Source of the DNA: a virus
IMG/VR virus record: IMGVR_UViG_3300006754_000009
Location: 25,264-89,263 of that record
Strand: one strand, 5' to 3'
DNA length: 64,000 bases
Shown here piece after piece: positions 3,600-61,928 of this stretch. The position numbers and the translations under genes are program-made. A model generated the notes under the pieces. The model did not search any database, was not told where the DNA came from, and saw only the letters and a list, made by a program, of their open reading frames with translations. Each line of letters begins with the position of its first letter. Positions within the stretch are counted from its first letter, which is position 1.

Positions 3600-5525
3600 A
3601 TGGAAGTATCAAATAAGATTCTATCGGATATTACTGTCTACATGAAGTACGCAAAATATATTCCACAATTCAATAGAAGAGAGACATGGGAAGAACTAGT
3701 AACAAGGAATAAAAACATGCATATAAAAAAGTATCCCACACTAAAAGAAGAAATAGAAGAGAAATACCAATTTGTTTATGAGAAGAAAGTATTACCATCA
3801 ATGAGAAGTACGCAGTTCGGAGGTAAACCAATTGAAATTTCACCCAATAGAATTTATAATTGTGCGTACCTACCTATAGACCACATTGACTCCTTTAGTG
3901 AAACCATGTTCTTATTATTAGGTGGAACCGGTGTCGGCTATTCAGTTCAAAAACATCATGTAGAGAAATTACCAGCAATACAACACCCATACCCAAAAAG
4001 AAAGAAAAGATTTTTAATTGGAGACTCGATTGAAGGTTGGGCGGACTCCATTAAAGTTTTAATGAAATCATATATGAATGGTGGTGGAAGCAGAGTAGAG
4101 TTTGATTATTCAGATATTAGACCAAAAGGAGCAAGACTAATTACTTCAGGAGGAAAAGCACCAGGACCACGACCATTAAAAGAATGTTTAGTTAAAATTG
4201 AAGGAATATTATCTGAGAAAGAAAATGGAGACCATCTAACAACTTTAGAAGTGCACGATATTATCTGTTATATTGCAGATGCAGTTCTAGCGGGAGGCAT
4301 TAGAAGAGCGGCTCTAATTAGTTTATTTAGTGCAGATGACAATGAAATGATTGGTTGTAAATCTGGTAAGTGGTACGAGAAAAACCCACAAAGAGGTAGA
4401 GCAAATAATTCTGCTTGCCTTATGAGACATAAAATTACTAAAGACTTTTTTATGGATATATGGAAAAGAGTTGAGCTATCTGGTGCTGGTGAACCCGGAA
4501 TTTATCTAAATAATGATAAAGATTGGGGAACAAATCCTTGTTGTGAAATAGCTTTAAGACCCTATCAATTCTGTAACCTTTGTGAGGTAAATGTAAGTAA
4601 TATAGACTCACAAGACGACTTAAATGAAAGAGTAAAAGCAGCAGCGTTTATTGGGACACTTCAAGCGGGGTACACCTCCTTCCATTATCTTAGAGAAATA
4701 TGGCAAGAAACTACGGAAAAAGACGCGTTAATAGGTGTATCAATGACAGGTATTGGTTCTGGTAAAGTATTAAAATATGATATGAAAAAAGCCGCAAGTT
4801 TAGTTAAACGTGAAAATACCAGAGTATCTAAATTATTAGAAATAAATCAAGCAGCAAGATGTACTACAGTTAAGCCTGCAGGAACTACATCATTAACATT
4901 AGGAACATCATCAGGTATTCATGCATGGCATAACGATTATTATATTAGAAGAATTAGAGTGGGTAAGAATGAAGCAATATATCACTATCTCATGACTAAT
5001 CATCCGGAATTACTAGAAGACGATTACTTTAGACCACATGATACAGCGGTAATTAGTATACCCCAAAAAGCACCAAAAGGTTCTATCATGAGAACGGAAT
5101 CCCCATTTCAACTACTAGAAAGAGTTAAAAAGGTTGCGAGTGAATGGGTTAGAAGTGGACACAGAAAAGGTTCAAACTCACACAACGTTTCAGCTACAAT
5201 TAGTTTAAAAGAAGATGAATGGGATAAAGCTGGAGAATGGATGTGGGAAAATAGAAAACATTATAATGGACTTTCAGTATTACCTTATGACGGTGGTACA
5301 TATACACAAGCCCCATTTGAGGACTCCACTAAAGAGGTTTACAATGAGATGATGAAAACTTTAAGTGAGATAGACTTGTCTAAGGTGGTGGAATTAGAAG
5401 ATAACACAGATTTATCCGGTGAATTAGCATGTGCGGGTGGTGTATGTGAAATTGATGTTGACTTAAAAACCCTAAACGGTAATGGAGTTACTAAAGAAAA
5501 AGAAGTAAGTGAAACACAAATTTAG
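3600..5525 (+). CDS. nrdJ: Class II (adenosylcobalamin-dependent) ribonucleotide reductase
   Basis: Makes deoxyribonucleotides for phage DNA synthesis. It matches the monomeric Lactobacillus leichmannii type. The active-site layout is complete: N-terminal redox Cys88 in 'IYNCAYLPI', thiyl-radical Cys314 and Glu316 in 'NPCCEIALRP', second redox Cys325 in 'QFCNLCEVN' (11 residues after the radical Cys, the family spacing), 'TTVKPAGTTSLTLGTSSG', and a C-terminal shuttle pair Cys611/Cys616 in 'CAGGVC'. The 641 residues are about 100 shorter than the L. leichmannii enzyme (739). As a class II enzyme it needs vitamin B12 cofactor from the host but no oxygen and no NrdB partner, and none is seen. 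A glutaredoxin at 49729 could reduce it. Confidence 0.93.
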   Translation: MEVSNKILSDITVYMKYAKYIPQFNRRETWEELVTRNKNMHIKKYPTLKEEIEEKYQFVYEKKVLPSMRSTQFGGKPIEISPNRIYNCAYLPIDHIDSFSETMFLLLGGTGVGYSVQKHHVEKLPAIQHPYPKRKKRFLIGDSIEGWADSIKVLMKSYMNGGGSRVEFDYSDIRPKGARLITSGGKAPGPRPLKECLVKIEGILSEKENGDHLTTLEVHDIICYIADAVLAGGIRRAALISLFSADDNEMIGCKSGKWYEKNPQRGRANNSACLMRHKITKDFFMDIWKRVELSGAGEPGIYLNNDKDWGTNPCCEIALRPYQFCNLCEVNVSNIDSQDDLNERVKAAAFIGTLQAGYTSFHYLREIWQETTEKDALIGVSMTGIGSGKVLKYDMKKAASLVKRENTRVSKLLEINQAARCTTVKPAGTTSLTLGTSSGIHAWHNDYYIRRIRVGKNEAIYHYLMTNHPELLEDDYFRPHDTAVISIPQKAPKGSIMRTESPFQLLERVKKVASEWVRSGHRKGSNSHNVSATISLKEDEWDKAGEWMWENRKHYNGLSVLPYDGGTYTQAPFEDSTKEVYNEMMKTLSEIDLSKVVELEDNTDLSGELACAGGVCEIDVDLKTLNGNGVTKEKEVSETQI

Positions 5526-5703
5526 TCAAGAAGTACTATACCACTTTAATTGTGGTAATTGTAAGAAATGGTGGTCAGTTGCTGACTACCATTTGTTTTC
5601 TAATAATGTACCAAAAAGTGAACAAATGGTACCTAAGTTAATAATATGTCCTCATTGTGGACATAAAGAGGAATCAATAGAAGTAAAAAATGAAAAAAAA
5701 TAA
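5509..5703 (+). CDS. Small zinc-ribbon protein
   Basis: A 64-residue protein with two Cys pairs, 'NCGNCKKWW' and 'ICPHCGHKEE', about 30 residues apart, the pattern of a single zinc ribbon. It starts at GTG 5509, inside the last 17 bases of the ribonucleotide reductase gene, so it should be translationally coupled to it; the only in-frame ATG lies after the first Cys pair. It could bind nucleic acid or help the reductase, but nothing in the sequence decides this. The family is unknown to me. Confidence 0.7.
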   Translation: MKHKFSQEVLYHFNCGNCKKWWSVADYHLFSNNVPKSEQMVPKLIICPHCGHKEESIEVKNEKK

Positions 5704-5842
5704 AGATTGGATTGAAGAACTATTTCTTAAAGAATTTATTTTAAAGAATAATAAAGAGAAAAGTAAATCCGAAAATAGAAAACAAAGTAATCTTAGAAGT
5801 ATTTATTATAAAAAAGAATGCCCAATCAAAAATACGGTATAA
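5690..5842 (+). CDS. Possible 50-residue basic peptide bridging zinc ribbon and gp25 genes
   Basis: ATG at 5690 opens a frame that overlaps the zinc-ribbon gene by 14 bases and runs 25 bases into the gp25 gene before TAA at 5840. The peptide is charged and helix-prone ('DWIEELFLKEFILKNNKEK'). It fills the only sizeable gap here and has the overlap pattern of neighbouring genes, but it is short, Lys/Asn-rich and could be chance coding in AT-rich sequence that mainly serves as a leader for the baseplate genes. Confidence 0.35.
   Translation: MKKNKDWIEELFLKEFILKNNKEKSKSENRKQSNLRSIYYKKECPIKNTV
5800..5806 (+). promoter_or_regulatory. TATTTAT element upstream of gp25 gene
   Basis: GTATTTATTATAAA, ending 11 bases before the ATG at 5818. 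It stands at the switch from replication genes to the virion block and could start late transcription. Confidence 0.35.
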
Positions 5843-6279
5843 CGTTCCCATTTAAAGATAGTCCAGAAGGATTTTTCTTAAAATTAAGTAATACTACTGA
5901 CGAAGAAGTAAGGTCGAGCTTAATCCACTTAATACTTACAGTCAAAGGGTCACGATATTTCTTACCGGATTTTGGCACAAACTTAATGAAGTTTATATTT
6001 GAACCACTAGATAACACAACTAAATTAAGTATTAATAATGAAATTAGGGATACTGTAGAGAAGTTCATGCCTAATTTAATAATTAATGATATAGAAGTTA
6101 AATCAGCGGAAGATATAAGATTAGAGCAGGAAAGTGACCCAAATTCCGAAGATATAAACAACAATAGTTTTGGTTTTGTGGGTGAAGACGAAAGAGAATA
6201 CGCCTTACGGGTTAGAATTGATTATACCGCAGGGGACGGCTTTTTTGAAACTAAAGATTTTGTTATAATAAATTTATAA
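5818..6279 (+). CDS. gp25: Baseplate wedge protein, T4 gp25 / lysozyme-like fold family
   Basis: Structural component of the baseplate wedge that joins the sheath initiator region in contractile tails. The core motif of the gp25/W family is seen: 'GITFPFKDSPEGFFLKLSNTTDEEVRSSL' (split over residues 7-35), then 'LTVKGSRYFLPDFGTNLMKFIFEPLD' (about 44-69), followed by a helix and 'ADEI'-like strands. The 153 residues are slightly longer than T4 gp25 (132), with an acidic insert around residues 100-120. It is directly followed by gp6 two bases later, the conserved order of T4-like and related injection machines. Confidence 0.9.
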   Translation: MPNQKYGITFPFKDSPEGFFLKLSNTTDEEVRSSLIHLILTVKGSRYFLPDFGTNLMKFIFEPLDNTTKLSINNEIRDTVEKFMPNLIINDIEVKSAEDIRLEQESDPNSEDINNNSFGFVGEDEREYALRVRIDYTAGDGFFETKDFVIINL

Positions 6280-8224: not shown

Positions 8225-11200
8225 ATGGCAAAATCTTTTAGAGTAAGAACAGAAGTAGGGAGGGATAAAAATGTAACTTTTGAATTAAATCAAGATTTTG
8301 ATTTATTAGAAATATTAAGTTTATCTCTTACACAACAAGAAATCTACACACGTATGTGTTCTGATTTTGGTGTGGTATGCGGTAGAGTTGTAGCTAATAA
8401 TGGTTTTGGTATTCCAAACGCTAAAGTATCCATATTCATCCCACTAGAGACCGAAGACGAAAAAAATGAGGTTGTAAGGTTTTTATACCCATATAAAGAA
8501 CCGTATGAAAAAAATGAAGACGGAAAAAGATACAACCTATTAAGTACGGAACCAAATTTTGATTGTCATGTTGCGGTAGGGACATTCCCCACACTTAAGT
8601 CGGTACTAACTCAACAAGAAGTTAAATACGTCTACGAAAAATATTATAAATTCACAGCTAAATCAAACGAGTCTGGAGACTTTATGATTTACGGGGTACC
8701 AACAGGTCCCCAACAAATAGTAATGGACGTAGATTTAAGTGATATCGGATGTTTTTCGATGCTTCCAGAAGACTTCAAACAAAAAGGAGCTCCACCATCT
8801 CAATTTGACGGACCTCGATTTAAAGATGACCCTGAGTTAGATTCTTTACCCCAAATTATAAATCAAACCAAAGTAGTTGATATAAGACCATTTTGGGGTG
8901 ATGAGGAGACATGTAGAGCTGCAATAACTAGAATAGATTTTGACCTAGGTAATTCTGGATTTAAATTAGAACCTACATCTGTGTTTATGGGTAGTACCGC
9001 TCAAGATACTGACAAAGATTCAGTAAACAAACAATGTAGACCTAAAAAACATATGGGTGAACTATGTAGTCTAATAACCACACCTGGGATTATAGATTGT
9101 ATCCGATATACACCATTTTTAAAAGATGACGACACAGCTTTTCCTACTTATAATGGTGTTACGTATAGTGGGCCACCACTTGGGGGTAAAGTTCCTGTAC
9201 TACAAAGACTTTATTTAGATAATGGTGGTAGGGTAATAGATGAAACTGGTTCATTTTTAGTACATATACCTATGAATTTAGACCATGTTACCACAGATGA
9301 ATTTGGTAAAATGATTTTATCTAACGACCCATCTAAGGGGGTTCCTACACGAGCCAGATGTAGATTTAGGGTTAGACCTGAACAAAGTAGAGGTACTGCA
9401 CGACAAAGACGGTCAGCAGCCTATCTAGTACCTAATCTAAGAGAATATACCACTCAAAACAATGACGACGGTGATTGGCCAGGAATTGACCCTAGAAGTT
9501 ATTGTTTCTCAACAGAATATAGTGATTATCATGGTTATGCACAAAGACATTTAATGCCTGGTGCTGAAGATGAATTTTATGATATGACCTTTAATAGAGT
9601 ATATACATGTGCTCAATTCCATGACCATGTTAAACACGCAGGAAGAAGGCAGTTTATCGGGATAAAAGAAATTTTACCAGAAATGGACCAACAATGTTCA
9701 ACATCCGCAATGTTTTTCCCCGTTAATAGTGCTGTGAGAAATGCAAAATTTATGATTTTCTTCATGAATTTTATATATGATTTTTTAGGTTTAATCTACA
9801 TGGTTATAAATTTAATTATTAGTTTATTAGCCGCTATATTAGGTTTAGTATTAGGGATTGTTTTATTTATAATTTGGGCCGTATGCATGTTGTGGTGTGC
9901 AATTTATGGTATTGTAATACAATTTTCTTTAGGATGGCCTTTTAATACTACATGGGTTTTATTTAGGATGTCATGGTTTCTTTCCTCACCACCCAACATA
10001 TGTGGACAAATAAATTTAACTGGATTTGGGTGCGGTATACAGTGTGAATATTTTGGTTTAACTATTGGGTTTGTTTTATTTCAGTTACGACAAACCAAAT
10101 ATCCAGATTGTGAAAAGTGTAGTTGTAGACCTTCAGCGAGTGATGAATTCATAGCCCTAGCTGACATTGCACCGTGTCCAGACGCGGTTCCAGAGGAACC
10201 AGAACCAGGGCAAAATTCTCCATGTCCTGTAGGTAACGCAACATTTAATAACTCAATGGGTATAGAAATGAAATGGAGTCATGACTGTTGTGGAACAGGA
10301 GACTATCTAACCTCACCTGAGACTGTCCAAGATACTGATACTATTTGTTGTCATAATTCTTATGGTTATAATTCTGAACTATATTCTCCTAGCCATGAGT
10401 CTGACGGTTTTGCTGCTGGAGGATGTTATGTAAAAATAGTGTGCTTTAACATTGCGTGTATTGGGTATAATTTAGATATGACAGTTCTATACGAATGGAT
10501 GAAAAGAGAGAAAGTAGCCAGTGCTTTATGTAATGGTATATTAAACTATTTCTGGGAAAATAGTTGGGTAAGTGGATTCTTATATCAGTTCCAGTTCAGA
10601 GCAAAATTGCAATTGACTGTTAATGGGTATACGGATTGGAGAGGAGAGACCCACGACACCTATATTACCGACTCAGATTTTTGTAGAAAAGTGGTGTACT
10701 TACATCCAGTAGATAATACATTTTATTATAGGTCAACACCATTCCAAGTCCAAAGTGCAGCAAAGGACGGACAATTCATCGGTGATACAGACGGAGTAAT
10801 GTCATTATGGTTTGCAGGAGGAAATCAAAGTGATGACTTACATGCATCCGGAGACATGGACCGACACATATATTTCCCAACAACCATGACGGATATGGGT
10901 TCTAGAAATCAGTGTATACAACAAATATGTTTAGACCCAAATTTTGCTGAAGAATGTTCAGTAACAGACCAAATAGGGAGTACTACATTCCAAGACATTA
11001 CAGATTTAGTTTCTGACACTTATAATCTTAAGTTATATGCTTTTAATTATACTTTATCTAGTATATTTGCTAGACCAGAAAAAGAAATTGGGGGTGATGT
11101 AGCACAAGCACTTATGCAAAATTGTATGTTAGGGGTATTTGGGTATGAATCCAATATGAGTAGTACGATTTGTGACTGTACTGACCCAACACAAAATACA

Positions 11201-59437: not shown

Positions 59438-60442
59438 ATGAATAAAGATTACTACAAAACTCTAAATATCAATAGAAACGCGTCGCAGGCTGAAGTAAAA
59501 AAGGCTTTTAGAACACTTTCTAAACAACATCACCCCGATAAAGGTGGTGACGCTAATACTTTTAAAGAAATGTCGGAAGCGTATGACACCCTAAGTGACG
59601 AGACCAAGAGAAGGGAATATGACACTCGAGGACAAAACCCCTTCAGTCAATTTAATCAACAAAGAGGTCCCAACATGGACGATTTAGTCAATCAATTTTT
59701 TGGTAGACGACAACAACCCCAAAGACCAAATAGAAAAGGTAGAGGACTTAATATCCCATTACAGGTAGAACTAGAAGATGTATTTTTTGGTCGAAATAAA
59801 AAAATTAAATATAAGAGACAGGTTAATTGTGGTGGGTGTAACGCGACAGGCGGAGAACATTATGTATGTCGTACATGCCATGGAAGGGGTACTATACAAC
59901 ATGCAGTAGGTAACGCATTCTTTAGACAGTTACACCAAGCGGAATGTAGTGCATGTAATGGACGTGGAAAAATCATCACCAGACCGTGTAGCACATGTGG
60001 GGGAAGTGCAAGGATTAATAAAGAAAATACGGTAGAGTTTAGTATCCCACAAGACTTAATGACAGGACAAGTCTACACGTTTAGAAATTTGGGTGATGAA
60101 ATAAAAGGTGGAGAAGCGGGAGACCTACAAATACAAGTGGTAATAACTAAACACCAACATTTTAATATACTAAATAAAGATTTGGTCTACGAACCAGTTC
60201 TATCTGTTTTAGATATGATTTTGGGGTGTAAGGTTGAGGTCCCTTATTTTGAAGGTCCTATTATGGCACAGGTACCCGAAGGTAGTGATGTTGAGGAAAG
60301 TTTCATAATACGAGGAAAGGGATTGAGAACTCCTGGAGGACCTGGAAATATAATGATAAAACCCAAAATAGTTACCCCACAACATTTAACTCACGAAGAA
60401 AAAGAAACATTAAAAATTTTGAGAGACAAAAAGAAAAATTAG
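59438..60442 (+). CDS. dnaJ: DnaJ (Hsp40) co-chaperone
   Basis: 334 residues with the full type I DnaJ layout: J domain (1-66) with 'KQHHPDKGG' (His-Pro-Asp at 32-34), a short Gly/Phe/Gln/Arg linker, a zinc domain with four CxxC pairs ('CGGC', 'CRTC', 'CSAC', 'CSTC'; the second to fourth with the CxGxG-type context), and the C-terminal substrate-binding domain ending near 'VTPQHLTHEEKETLKILR'. It should recruit host DnaK to phage substrates. No phage DnaK or GrpE is in the window. Its start codon is fused back to back with a minus-strand gene. Confidence 0.95.
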   Translation: MNKDYYKTLNINRNASQAEVKKAFRTLSKQHHPDKGGDANTFKEMSEAYDTLSDETKRREYDTRGQNPFSQFNQQRGPNMDDLVNQFFGRRQQPQRPNRKGRGLNIPLQVELEDVFFGRNKKIKYKRQVNCGGCNATGGEHYVCRTCHGRGTIQHAVGNAFFRQLHQAECSACNGRGKIITRPCSTCGGSARINKENTVEFSIPQDLMTGQVYTFRNLGDEIKGGEAGDLQIQVVITKHQHFNILNKDLVYEPVLSVLDMILGCKVEVPYFEGPIMAQVPEGSDVEESFIIRGKGLRTPGGPGNIMIKPKIVTPQHLTHEEKETLKILRDKKKN

Positions 60443-60752: not shown

Positions 60753-61928
60753 ATGAACAAACAGACAACATTATTTGATATTATAGAAGAGGAAGAACTC
60801 TTTGATTTCGAAGGCAACAAACAAAACCTTATTGACAATCTGGATATGTTAAAAAAGATGACCGTCCAAGAACAAACACTTTATAAAAAGTGGCAAGAAA
60901 TGAATAAGGGTGGCAAGATGGCCAAGATAAAAAATAAATTGTACGATTACCGAATAAATCTATGGGTACCATCAGATTTAGATGACCTAGAACACACTAT
61001 AAAACAAATTGAAGAGTTAGAACCTTATGTTGAAATGGCAACACCAGGAAAAGGTGTTACCGAATGGGTAAACTATAGAAAACTTATCCATACGATGGAA
61101 TGGGTTGCAAATCCTGGACGAAATATGAAATTCTGGGTTAGGGATAGGAAAACAGAGAAAGTCCTTGGTTTGATTTGTTTAGGGTCTGACGTTACAAGTA
61201 TTAAAGTTAGAGACGCTTATATAGGTTGGGATAAAACTAATAAGTTCGACCAACATAAATTAAACAATACAGCTATAGCAACTACAATATGTTCAACACA
61301 ACCAGGTGGGTATAATATGTTGATGGGTAAGTTAGTTGCAGCTCTTACTACATGTAAAACTATTAGAGATGCGTGGGAAGAAAAATACGGGGACAAATTA
61401 ATCGCGGTAGGAACAACCTCACTATATGGTATAAATTCTATGTATAATGGAATGCCACACTTCAAAACAATGGGGGAAACAGCGGGTCAGGTAAGATTAA
61501 AACCAGATGATGACGTATATTTACCTTGGAATAGTTGGTTAAAAGAAAACCACCCAGAAGAACATAAGAAAGCTATAAACGCTACAGGACCTAAACAGAA
61601 TATCATTAACAAGGTTTTTAAACATTGTAGTATAAAGGGTTCAGATTATGACCACGGGTTCAAGAGAGGGGTCTATCTTGCAATGATGTACGATAATGGA
61701 TGTGAATTCTTGAGGAACGAAATAGGAGAAAAAGACCTAAAATTAAAGAAGAAGTTCCAAGACGATATTCCGTACACTGATAAATGGTGGAAGAAAAAAG
61801 CAATAAGAAGATATAAAAACATGTATAACCAAGACAGGATTAAACCAGAACAATTATTTTATTGGGATGTAATTGATTTATCGTGGGAAGATACACAAAA
61901 TAAATACATAAAAGAAGTAGGGAGATAA
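60753..61928 (+). CDS. DruA-like protein (DUF4338)
   Basis: 391 residues. The central part resembles DUF4338, the family of DruA in the Druantia anti-phage system: 'NMKFWVRDRKTEKVLGLICL' (about residue 120), 'VRDAYIGWDKTNKF' and 'KLNNTAIATTICS', then 'IRDAWEEKYGDKLIAVGTTS' and 'HFKTMGETAGQ', in the family order (RD.YIGW; N; W..Y...L; G.T.G). It lacks the DruE helicase and other Druantia partners in this window. A phage could carry it against rival phages or as a decoy; this is inference. The N-terminal 110 residues are unassigned. Confidence 0.65.
   Translation: MNKQTTLFDIIEEEELFDFEGNKQNLIDNLDMLKKMTVQEQTLYKKWQEMNKGGKMAKIKNKLYDYRINLWVPSDLDDLEHTIKQIEELEPYVEMATPGKGVTEWVNYRKLIHTMEWVANPGRNMKFWVRDRKTEKVLGLICLGSDVTSIKVRDAYIGWDKTNKFDQHKLNNTAIATTICSTQPGGYNMLMGKLVAALTTCKTIRDAWEEKYGDKLIAVGTTSLYGINSMYNGMPHFKTMGETAGQVRLKPDDDVYLPWNSWLKENHPEEHKKAINATGPKQNIINKVFKHCSIKGSDYDHGFKRGVYLAMMYDNGCEFLRNEIGEKDLKLKKKFQDDIPYTDKWWKKKAIRRYKNMYNQDRIKPEQLFYWDVIDLSWEDTQNKYIKEVGR

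What the first reader, a model, noticed from the sequence alone, without database searches (positions are those of the whole stretch)
60753..61928. DruA-like (DUF4338) gene carried by a phage
Seen: family-ordered motifs ('RDAYIGW', 'DAWEEKYGDKL', 'GETAGQ'). Known: DruA is part of Druantia defence systems, usually with other genes such as the DruE helicase. None is near. Inference: superinfection exclusion, a counter-defence decoy, or a DNA-modifying or processing enzyme with a separate phage role.
Basis: partly seen in the sequence, partly recalled or inferred. Interest (0 to 1): 0.68.

Follow-up and report, generated by a model that had tools for sequence, protein, structure and literature searches.

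The report
Phage DruA-like enzyme, probably modifies DNA
A marine T4-like phage carries a DruA-family protein that, in related phages, sits inside the DNA-copying gene cluster, takes turns in the same gene slot with known DNA-marking enzymes, and travels with the DNA-marking gene Mom, so it is probably an enzyme that chemically marks phage DNA rather than a borrowed bacterial immune gene.

Summary
Window 60753-61928 (+) encodes a 391-aa protein of Pfam DruA/DUF4338 (PF14236, E 4.6e-23). It matches true Druantia DruA profile-to-profile over 262 columns (probability 99.7%), and no DruE-type helicase domain is in the 89-kb record. The model is confident (pLDDT 90) and its PDB neighbours are mostly GNAT acyltransferases. 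The gene is under strong purifying selection (dN/dS 0.05-0.10).

Relatives point away from defence. The family is widespread in T4-like phages, often inside the polymerase/clamp/clamp-loader operon. In cyanophage-like loci the gp44-gp62 slot holds either a DruA-like gene (19) or a Dam-type N6-adenine DNA methyltransferase (35), never both, with at least 12 parsimony switches. In another lineage it is gained and lost together with Mom genes; there its slot is otherwise filled by a TET-associated (DNA) glycosyltransferase, an ORF with weak DNA-methyltransferase similarity, or an unknown ORF.

Best explanation: a GNAT-fold enzyme that acylates bases of phage DNA at the replisome. Slot exchange and co-inheritance are shown in relatives; the chemistry is inferred. 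The window's own lineage lacks the slot context, and its record has no Mom. The phage family was known (Phold paper); I found no paper proposing the modification role, but the library is partial.

The parts
60753..61928 (+). DruA-like (PF14236/DUF4338) gene, 391 aa
   Evidence: 57 viral loci
60753..61022 (+). N-terminal helical region, residues 1-90 (residues 1-13 disordered)
   Evidence: AlphaFold2 model; absent or different in cyanophage members
61023..61496 (+). GNAT-like core, residues 91-248 (strands 91-95, 124-131, 137-145, 173-180, 218-223, 238-248)
   Evidence: model; Foldseek PDB neighbours mostly GNATs
61209..61229 (+). RD-x-x-IGW motif, residues 153-159, shared with Druantia DruA
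   Evidence: alignment; 177 of 208 phage sequences carry RD..I.W
61299..61334 (+). QPGGYNMLMGKL, residues 183-194: loop and helix after strand 173-180, the position of the GNAT acyl-CoA loop
   Evidence: QPxG and GKL present in 208/208; role inferred
61413..61445 (+). TTSLYG...S-x-Y, residues 221-231, strand 218-223 and following loop; shared with Druantia DruA (TTSS/TSS/TSA...SSxYN)
   Evidence: 208/208
61509..61925 (+). C-terminal domain, residues 253-391, with basic WWKKKAIRRY helix; homologous to the DruA C-terminus as far as about residue 353
   Evidence: hhalign to DruA; model

Best explanation
The gene encodes a GNAT-fold acyltransferase that adds an acyl-type group to bases of newly made phage DNA. 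It would act beside the polymerase/clamp machinery and serve as an alternative or partner to Dam methylation, Mom modification and DNA glucosylation, most simply to hide phage DNA from host nucleases. Shown: family membership, GNAT-like fold (Foldseek against PDB), strict conservation of the core, position in the replisome operon of relatives, slot exchange with Dam-type methyltransferase and with a DNA glycosyltransferase, co-inheritance with Mom. Inferred: that it is catalytic, that DNA is the substrate, that the donor is an acyl-CoA-like molecule, which base is modified, and that the window's copy does the same job although its own gene context differs.
For: (1) Fold: model pLDDT 90.1, pTM 0.84; PDB neighbours are mostly GNATs; DUF4338 was independently called a GNAT domain in PMC10853773. 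(2) Conservation: QPxG, GKL, TT[SA]L and SxY[NDQ] in 208/208 distinct phage proteins; dN/dS 0.05-0.10. (3) Context: gp43-gp45-[DruA-like]-gp44-gp62 in the 50-56%-identity lineage; gp44-[DruA-like]-gp62-regA in many cyanophages; near gp46/47 and gp45 in Pelagibacter phages. (4) Slot exchange: of 57 cyanophage-like gp44-gp62 slots, 19 DruA-like, 35 D12 N6-adenine MTase (38/38 long D12 ORFs carry DPPY), 3 neither, 0 both, Fisher p 2.4e-12, not corrected for kinship; at least 12 parsimony switches on the gp44 tree, at least 5 forced by strong branches. Eight of nine isolate genomes with the gene have no D12 MTase at all. (5) In gp43-anchored loci, DruA+/Mom+ 27, DruA+/Mom- 1, DruA-/Mom- 22, DruA-/Mom+ 0; the two change together in about 4.7 of 5 independent pairs and never oppositely. 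All 53 Mom-anchored loci with enough flank carry the DruA-like gene. (6) Its slot otherwise holds a TET-associated glycosyltransferase (PF20691, 3.2e-35), a 543-550-aa ORF with weak DNA-methyltransferase similarity (1.6e-8), or an unknown 496-aa ORF.
Against: No chemistry is shown. Profile comparison with Mom finds nothing (probability 2.4%) and Mom's structure 8bv8 is not among the 50 listed fold neighbours. PDB fold matches are individually weak (best E 0.008, TM-score on the query at most 0.27). The acyl-CoA loop reads QPxGYN, not a perfect Q/RxxGxG/A. The strong context evidence comes from relatives at 21-57% identity; in the window's own lineage the gene lies beside DnaJ and a HAD phosphatase, no DruA-less relative was found to test the slot, and Mom is absent from G000 and from four of seven longer relatives. 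The DruA/Mom pairing rests on only 5 independent events (sign test p 0.0625). The window and its lineage contain no GATC at all, so the enzyme does not replace Dam protection of GATC there.
Confidence: 0.6

Rival explanations
1. A protein acyltransferase: a GNAT that acetylates a replisome or host protein (such as the clamp loader or RNA polymerase), as phage GNATs such as Rac are reported to do.
For: GNAT-like fold; tight neighbourhood with clamp and clamp-loader genes; a phage GNAT acting on RNA polymerase is described in PMC7824862.
Against: Does not explain exchange with Dam in the same slot, the DNA glycosyltransferase alternative or pairing with Mom.
Confidence: 0.14
2. A non-catalytic DNA-binding or replisome accessory protein that kept the GNAT fold only as a scaffold; Druantia DruA would be the same kind of part.
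For: Imperfect GNAT loop and weak PDB matches; basic C-terminal helix; Druantia DruA lacks the Q and G of the phage loop.
Against: Core motifs at the expected acyl-donor site conserved in 208/208 sequences; replaceable by enzymes, so not a fixed replisome part.
Confidence: 0.11
3. Superinfection exclusion: the phage uses a lone DruA to block competing phages, in the manner of Druantia.
For: Homologous to Druantia type I DruA almost throughout.
Against: No DruE-type helicase domains in the record; core-operon position and Dam/Mom association in relatives; strong purifying selection.
Confidence: 0.07
4. A decoy or inhibitor that disrupts the host's Druantia complex by mimicking DruA.
For: Shared motifs with DruA.
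Against: Conserved residues fall in the putative active-site loops, not expected of a decoy; PF14236 in only 1 of 148 genomes of one sampled phylum, which may not be the host's; alternation with Dam is unexplained.
Confidence: 0.05

Closest known systems
Druantia type I DruA (PF14236)
   Same: Homologous over 262 aligned columns including much of the C-terminal domain; shared RDxxIxW, YN/YSxLLGGKL, TTS/TSS/TSA and SSxYN
   Different: Stand-alone, no DruE domains; loop reads TQPxGYN in phages versus GAxPPYN in Druantia; sits among phage genes instead of a defence operon
DruA-like proteins of Synechococcus phages reported in the Phold paper (PMC12774648) / phrog_19197
   Same: Same family; S-PRM1 is in my alignment
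   Different: Reported only as structural look-alikes of DruA; no replisome slot, Dam exchange or Mom pairing in the passages read
Mom DNA modification enzyme (PF25680, PDB 8bv8)
   Same: GNAT superfamily according to the literature; found in the same replication module and co-inherited in one lineage
   Different: No detectable profile similarity; Mom residues H48, Y49, E98, S114 and D139 have no counterpart that I could align
Dam-type D12 N6-adenine DNA methyltransferase of cyanophages (PF02086)
   Same: Occupies the same gp44-gp62 slot in place of the DruA-like gene
   Different: Unrelated fold and chemistry (SAM-dependent methyl transfer)
GNAT (DUF4338) domain fused to DndF in phosphorothioate restriction systems (PMC10853773)
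   Same: Same Pfam family, called a GNAT by those authors
   Different: Fused domain in a bacterial restriction complex, suggested there to act on proteins

Membership tests
DruA / DUF4338 protein family (PF14236) | Profile HMM match above curated cut-off | tested here: met
   82.3 bits against 27; 17 of 17 phage relatives match
DruA / DUF4338 protein family (PF14236) | Conserved core motifs of Druantia DruA | tested here: met
   RDxxIxW, GKL after a YN/YS turn, TT/TS and SxYN aligned with three Druantia type I DruAs; phage-specific QPxG differs and the window reads MGKL for GGKL
Druantia defence system | DruE helicase (YprA-like, MZB domain) next to it | tested here: not met
   No PF09369 or PF00271 match in the 89-kb record; controls rang
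Druantia defence system | DruB, DruC, DruD neighbours | not tested
   No Druantia models were run over the whole record; Pfam scans of 9 flanking ORFs showed DnaJ, HAD and DUF3310 matches or nothing telling
Druantia defence system | Anti-phage activity | not testable with these tools
   needs plating assays
GNAT acyltransferase superfamily | GNAT fold | tested here: met
   Model pLDDT 90; PDB neighbours mostly GNATs, up to probability 0.97 but best E only 0.008 and low TM-scores
GNAT acyltransferase superfamily | Q/R-x-x-G-x-G/A acyl-CoA loop after strand 4 | tested here: inconclusive
   QPxGYN at the right place, last G/A replaced by N or S
Mom family (PF25680) | Profile match to Mom | tested here: not met
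   No Mom hit in Pfam scan; hhalign probability 2.4%
DNA-modifying enzymes | Modified base in DNA that depends on the gene | not testable with these tools
   only indirect: slot exchange with Dam and TAGT, co-inheritance with Mom

The most novel reading that the evidence does not exclude
Phage DruA-like proteins are a new class of DNA base-acylating enzymes, exchangeable with Dam and working together with Mom, and Druantia type I DruA descends from or shares this chemistry, so that Druantia type I marks or reads modified DNA.
Probability: 0.35. Interest if true: 0.87.

Novelty: new variant of a known kind. Interest (0 to 1): 0.7.

Why it matters
I found no stated function for DruA of Druantia type I in the papers searched. 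A widespread phage branch of the family that swaps places with Dam and travels with Mom gives a concrete, testable answer (DNA modification), adds a likely new DNA-marking enzyme class in abundant marine phages, and warns that 'DruA' hits in phages should not be annotated as anti-phage defence.

Tried and rejected
Mom homology by profile (A3 vs A4, A5 vs A4): not detected. Solved-structure sequence search: only chance IFT122 hits, none with the profile. GATC or palindrome avoidance as a reporter of the modified site: cyanophages with Dam and with the DruA-like gene look alike (0.74 and 0.68 of expectation), while in the gp43 lineage GATC is missing or nearly so with or without the gene, so it is uninformative about the target. 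Testing the slot in the window's own lineage through DnaJ gave only contigs that already carry the gene. A search of 148 genomes of the phylum of G006 gave no further DruA loci to use. Literature searches combining DruA with GNAT, Mom and DNA modification returned no paper that combines them. Considered and dropped: prophage-borne defence cargo, since the window is a T4-like lytic-type genome (helicase, baseplate wedge) and the relatives' genes lie in the replication operon.

Full report
OBSERVATION. The ORF at 60753-61928 (+) is 391 aa, and matches Pfam DruA PF14236 with E 4.6e-23, three times its cut-off score, PADLOC DruA1 and phrog_19197. NCBIfam gives nothing. The record that holds the window is an 89,263-bp virus contig; the window is its last 64 kb. 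Other window genes (DnaB-like helicase, ribonucleotide reductase, baseplate wedge) mark a T4-like phage. No DruE-type domains (MZB, Helicase_C) occur in the record.

RELATIVES. IMG/VR holds 57 loci found with the single sequence and at least 600 stretches matching an alignment-derived pattern. Genomes of cultured or binned prokaryotes give only 10, several on short contigs. Isolates are Pelagibacter phages Mosig and HTVC008M and about 25 Synechococcus phage records. Against 12 close relatives dN/dS is 0.05-0.10. Median identity of the protein over 27 relatives is 86%, against about 37-63% for most genes on its left side; this is biased because the loci were fetched by this gene. All 208 distinct full-length phage proteins keep QPxG, GKL, TT[SA]L and SxY[NDQ].

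MEMBERSHIP. The profile of 32 family members matches three Druantia type I DruAs (from plasmids; two with a DEAD/DEAH helicase downstream, one with it upstream) with probability 99.7%, E 3.4e-25 over 262 columns, reaching into the C-terminal domain. Shared and different residues are listed. The phage proteins carry TQPxGYN where Druantia DruA has GAxPPYN; the window reads MGKL where most members read GGKL. The match to Mom is nil. So it is a DruA-family protein, not part of a Druantia system, and not a Mom.

STRUCTURE. AlphaFold2 with a 32-sequence alignment gives pLDDT 90.1 and pTM 0.84. Foldseek against PDB returns mostly GNAT acyltransferases in the top 50, at marginal E-values (best 0.008) and with low TM-scores on the query, which fits a distant GNAT with added helical domains. 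An independent paper calls DUF4338 a GNAT domain (PMC10853773). BFVD also shows giant-virus proteins of similar structure (Faunusvirus A0A3G4ZXG3, E 2e-18, 22% identity).

GENE CONTEXT. In the 50-56% lineage the order is gp43 DNA polymerase, gp45 clamp, DruA-like, gp44 clamp loader, gp62. In many cyanophages it is gp45, gp44, DruA-like, gp62, regA, then gp43. In Pelagibacter phages it lies between gp46/47 and CobS/gp45, and in S-B68 beside gp47 and gp46. In the window's lineage it follows DnaJ and precedes a small ORF and a HAD phosphatase.

SLOT EXCHANGE. To avoid fetching loci by the gene itself, I fetched loci by gp44 of S-SM2. Of 57 gp44-gp62 slots, 19 hold a DruA-like gene, 35 a D12 N6-adenine DNA methyltransferase (Pfam 1e-27 to 2e-28 for three; 38 of 38 long D12 ORFs with DPPY), 3 neither, 0 both. 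The gp44 tree needs at least 12 switches, 5 of them forced by strongly supported branches. In isolate records the same methyltransferase is often annotated dam. Eight of nine isolate genomes with the DruA-like gene have no D12 enzyme; S-SCSM2R has one elsewhere.

MOM PAIRING. Loci fetched by gp43 of L073: of 50 with enough flank, 27 carry both the DruA-like gene and Mom, 1 the DruA-like gene alone, 22 neither, 0 Mom alone. The anchor itself came from a phage with the gene, so this samples its lineage and is not a census. On the gp43 tree the state of the DruA-like gene changes 5 times and Mom goes the same way in about 4.7 of 5 independent pairs, never the other way; five events cannot reach significance alone. 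Fetched by Mom, 53 of 53 loci with 7 kb downstream have the gene. Without it, the slot between gp45 and gp44 holds a TET-associated glycosyltransferase, an ORF of 543-550 aa with weak DNA-methyltransferase similarity, or an unknown 496-aa ORF, and one subgroup (L245 and its kin) has no gene there. Mom is also present, elsewhere in the genome, in three of seven longer relatives of the window's lineage, but not in G000.

INTERPRETATION. A GNAT-like protein that swaps with an adenine DNA methyltransferase in one lineage, with a DNA glycosyltransferase in another, and is inherited with Mom, is most simply a DNA-modifying enzyme acting at the fork. Substrate base, donor and protective role are inferred. 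Rivals and their weights are given in their field.

PRIOR KNOWLEDGE. The Phold paper (PMC12774648) already reports DruA-like proteins in six Synechococcus phages, so the presence of the family in phages is not new. I found no paper on the slot exchange, the Mom pairing or the modification role; the library searched is partial.

LIMITS. Context evidence is from relatives, not the window's own lineage. Counts are of contigs, some near-identical; only the tree tests correct for this. Coordinates of the AlphaFold model could not be inspected, so active-site geometry is not tested.

Noticed in passing
window 1-64000; also L001-L034: GATC is completely absent: 0 in the window (114 expected) and 0 in 34 loci of its lineage (749 expected); GCGC is also depleted (0.12). 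Pelagibacter phages also nearly lack GATC, cyanophages keep it.
   Followed up: partly
L035:142-942 and 8408-9103; L053:5149-5949; L121:4364-5116 and 5124-5924; L102; L133: Mom-family DNA modification genes (PF25680), often two in tandem, inside or beside the T4-like replication operon of uncultivated phages.
   Followed up: yes
L194:12276-13526: TET-associated glycosyltransferase (PF20691, E 3.2e-35) in the gp45-gp44 slot that holds the DruA-like gene in sister phages.
   Followed up: partly
L204:12919-14406; L073:1580-2695; L073:25-1575: ORFs of 496, 372 and 517 aa with no Pfam match beside gp43/gp45 (the 496-aa one also has no PHROG match); they sit in or next to the modification slots and may be unrecognised modification enzymes.
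   Followed up: no
BFVD A0A3G4ZXG3, A0A5K0UAJ3, A0A3G4ZRA1: Giant viruses (Faunusvirus, Yasminevirus, Dasosvirus) encode proteins structurally close to this family, two of them over 1150 aa, suggesting fusions.
   Followed up: no
L162, L164 (Thermoplasmata MAG contigs G003:C182 and C121): Two DruA-family ORFs in tandem (about 430-480 and 370-380 aa) on each of two short contigs.
   Followed up: no
window 59438-60442: Phage-encoded full-length DnaJ (J domain, zinc finger, C-terminal domain) immediately upstream; best phage-record matches are DnaJ-like genes of huge uncultured phages, Acinetobacter phage and others at 32-35%.
   Followed up: partly
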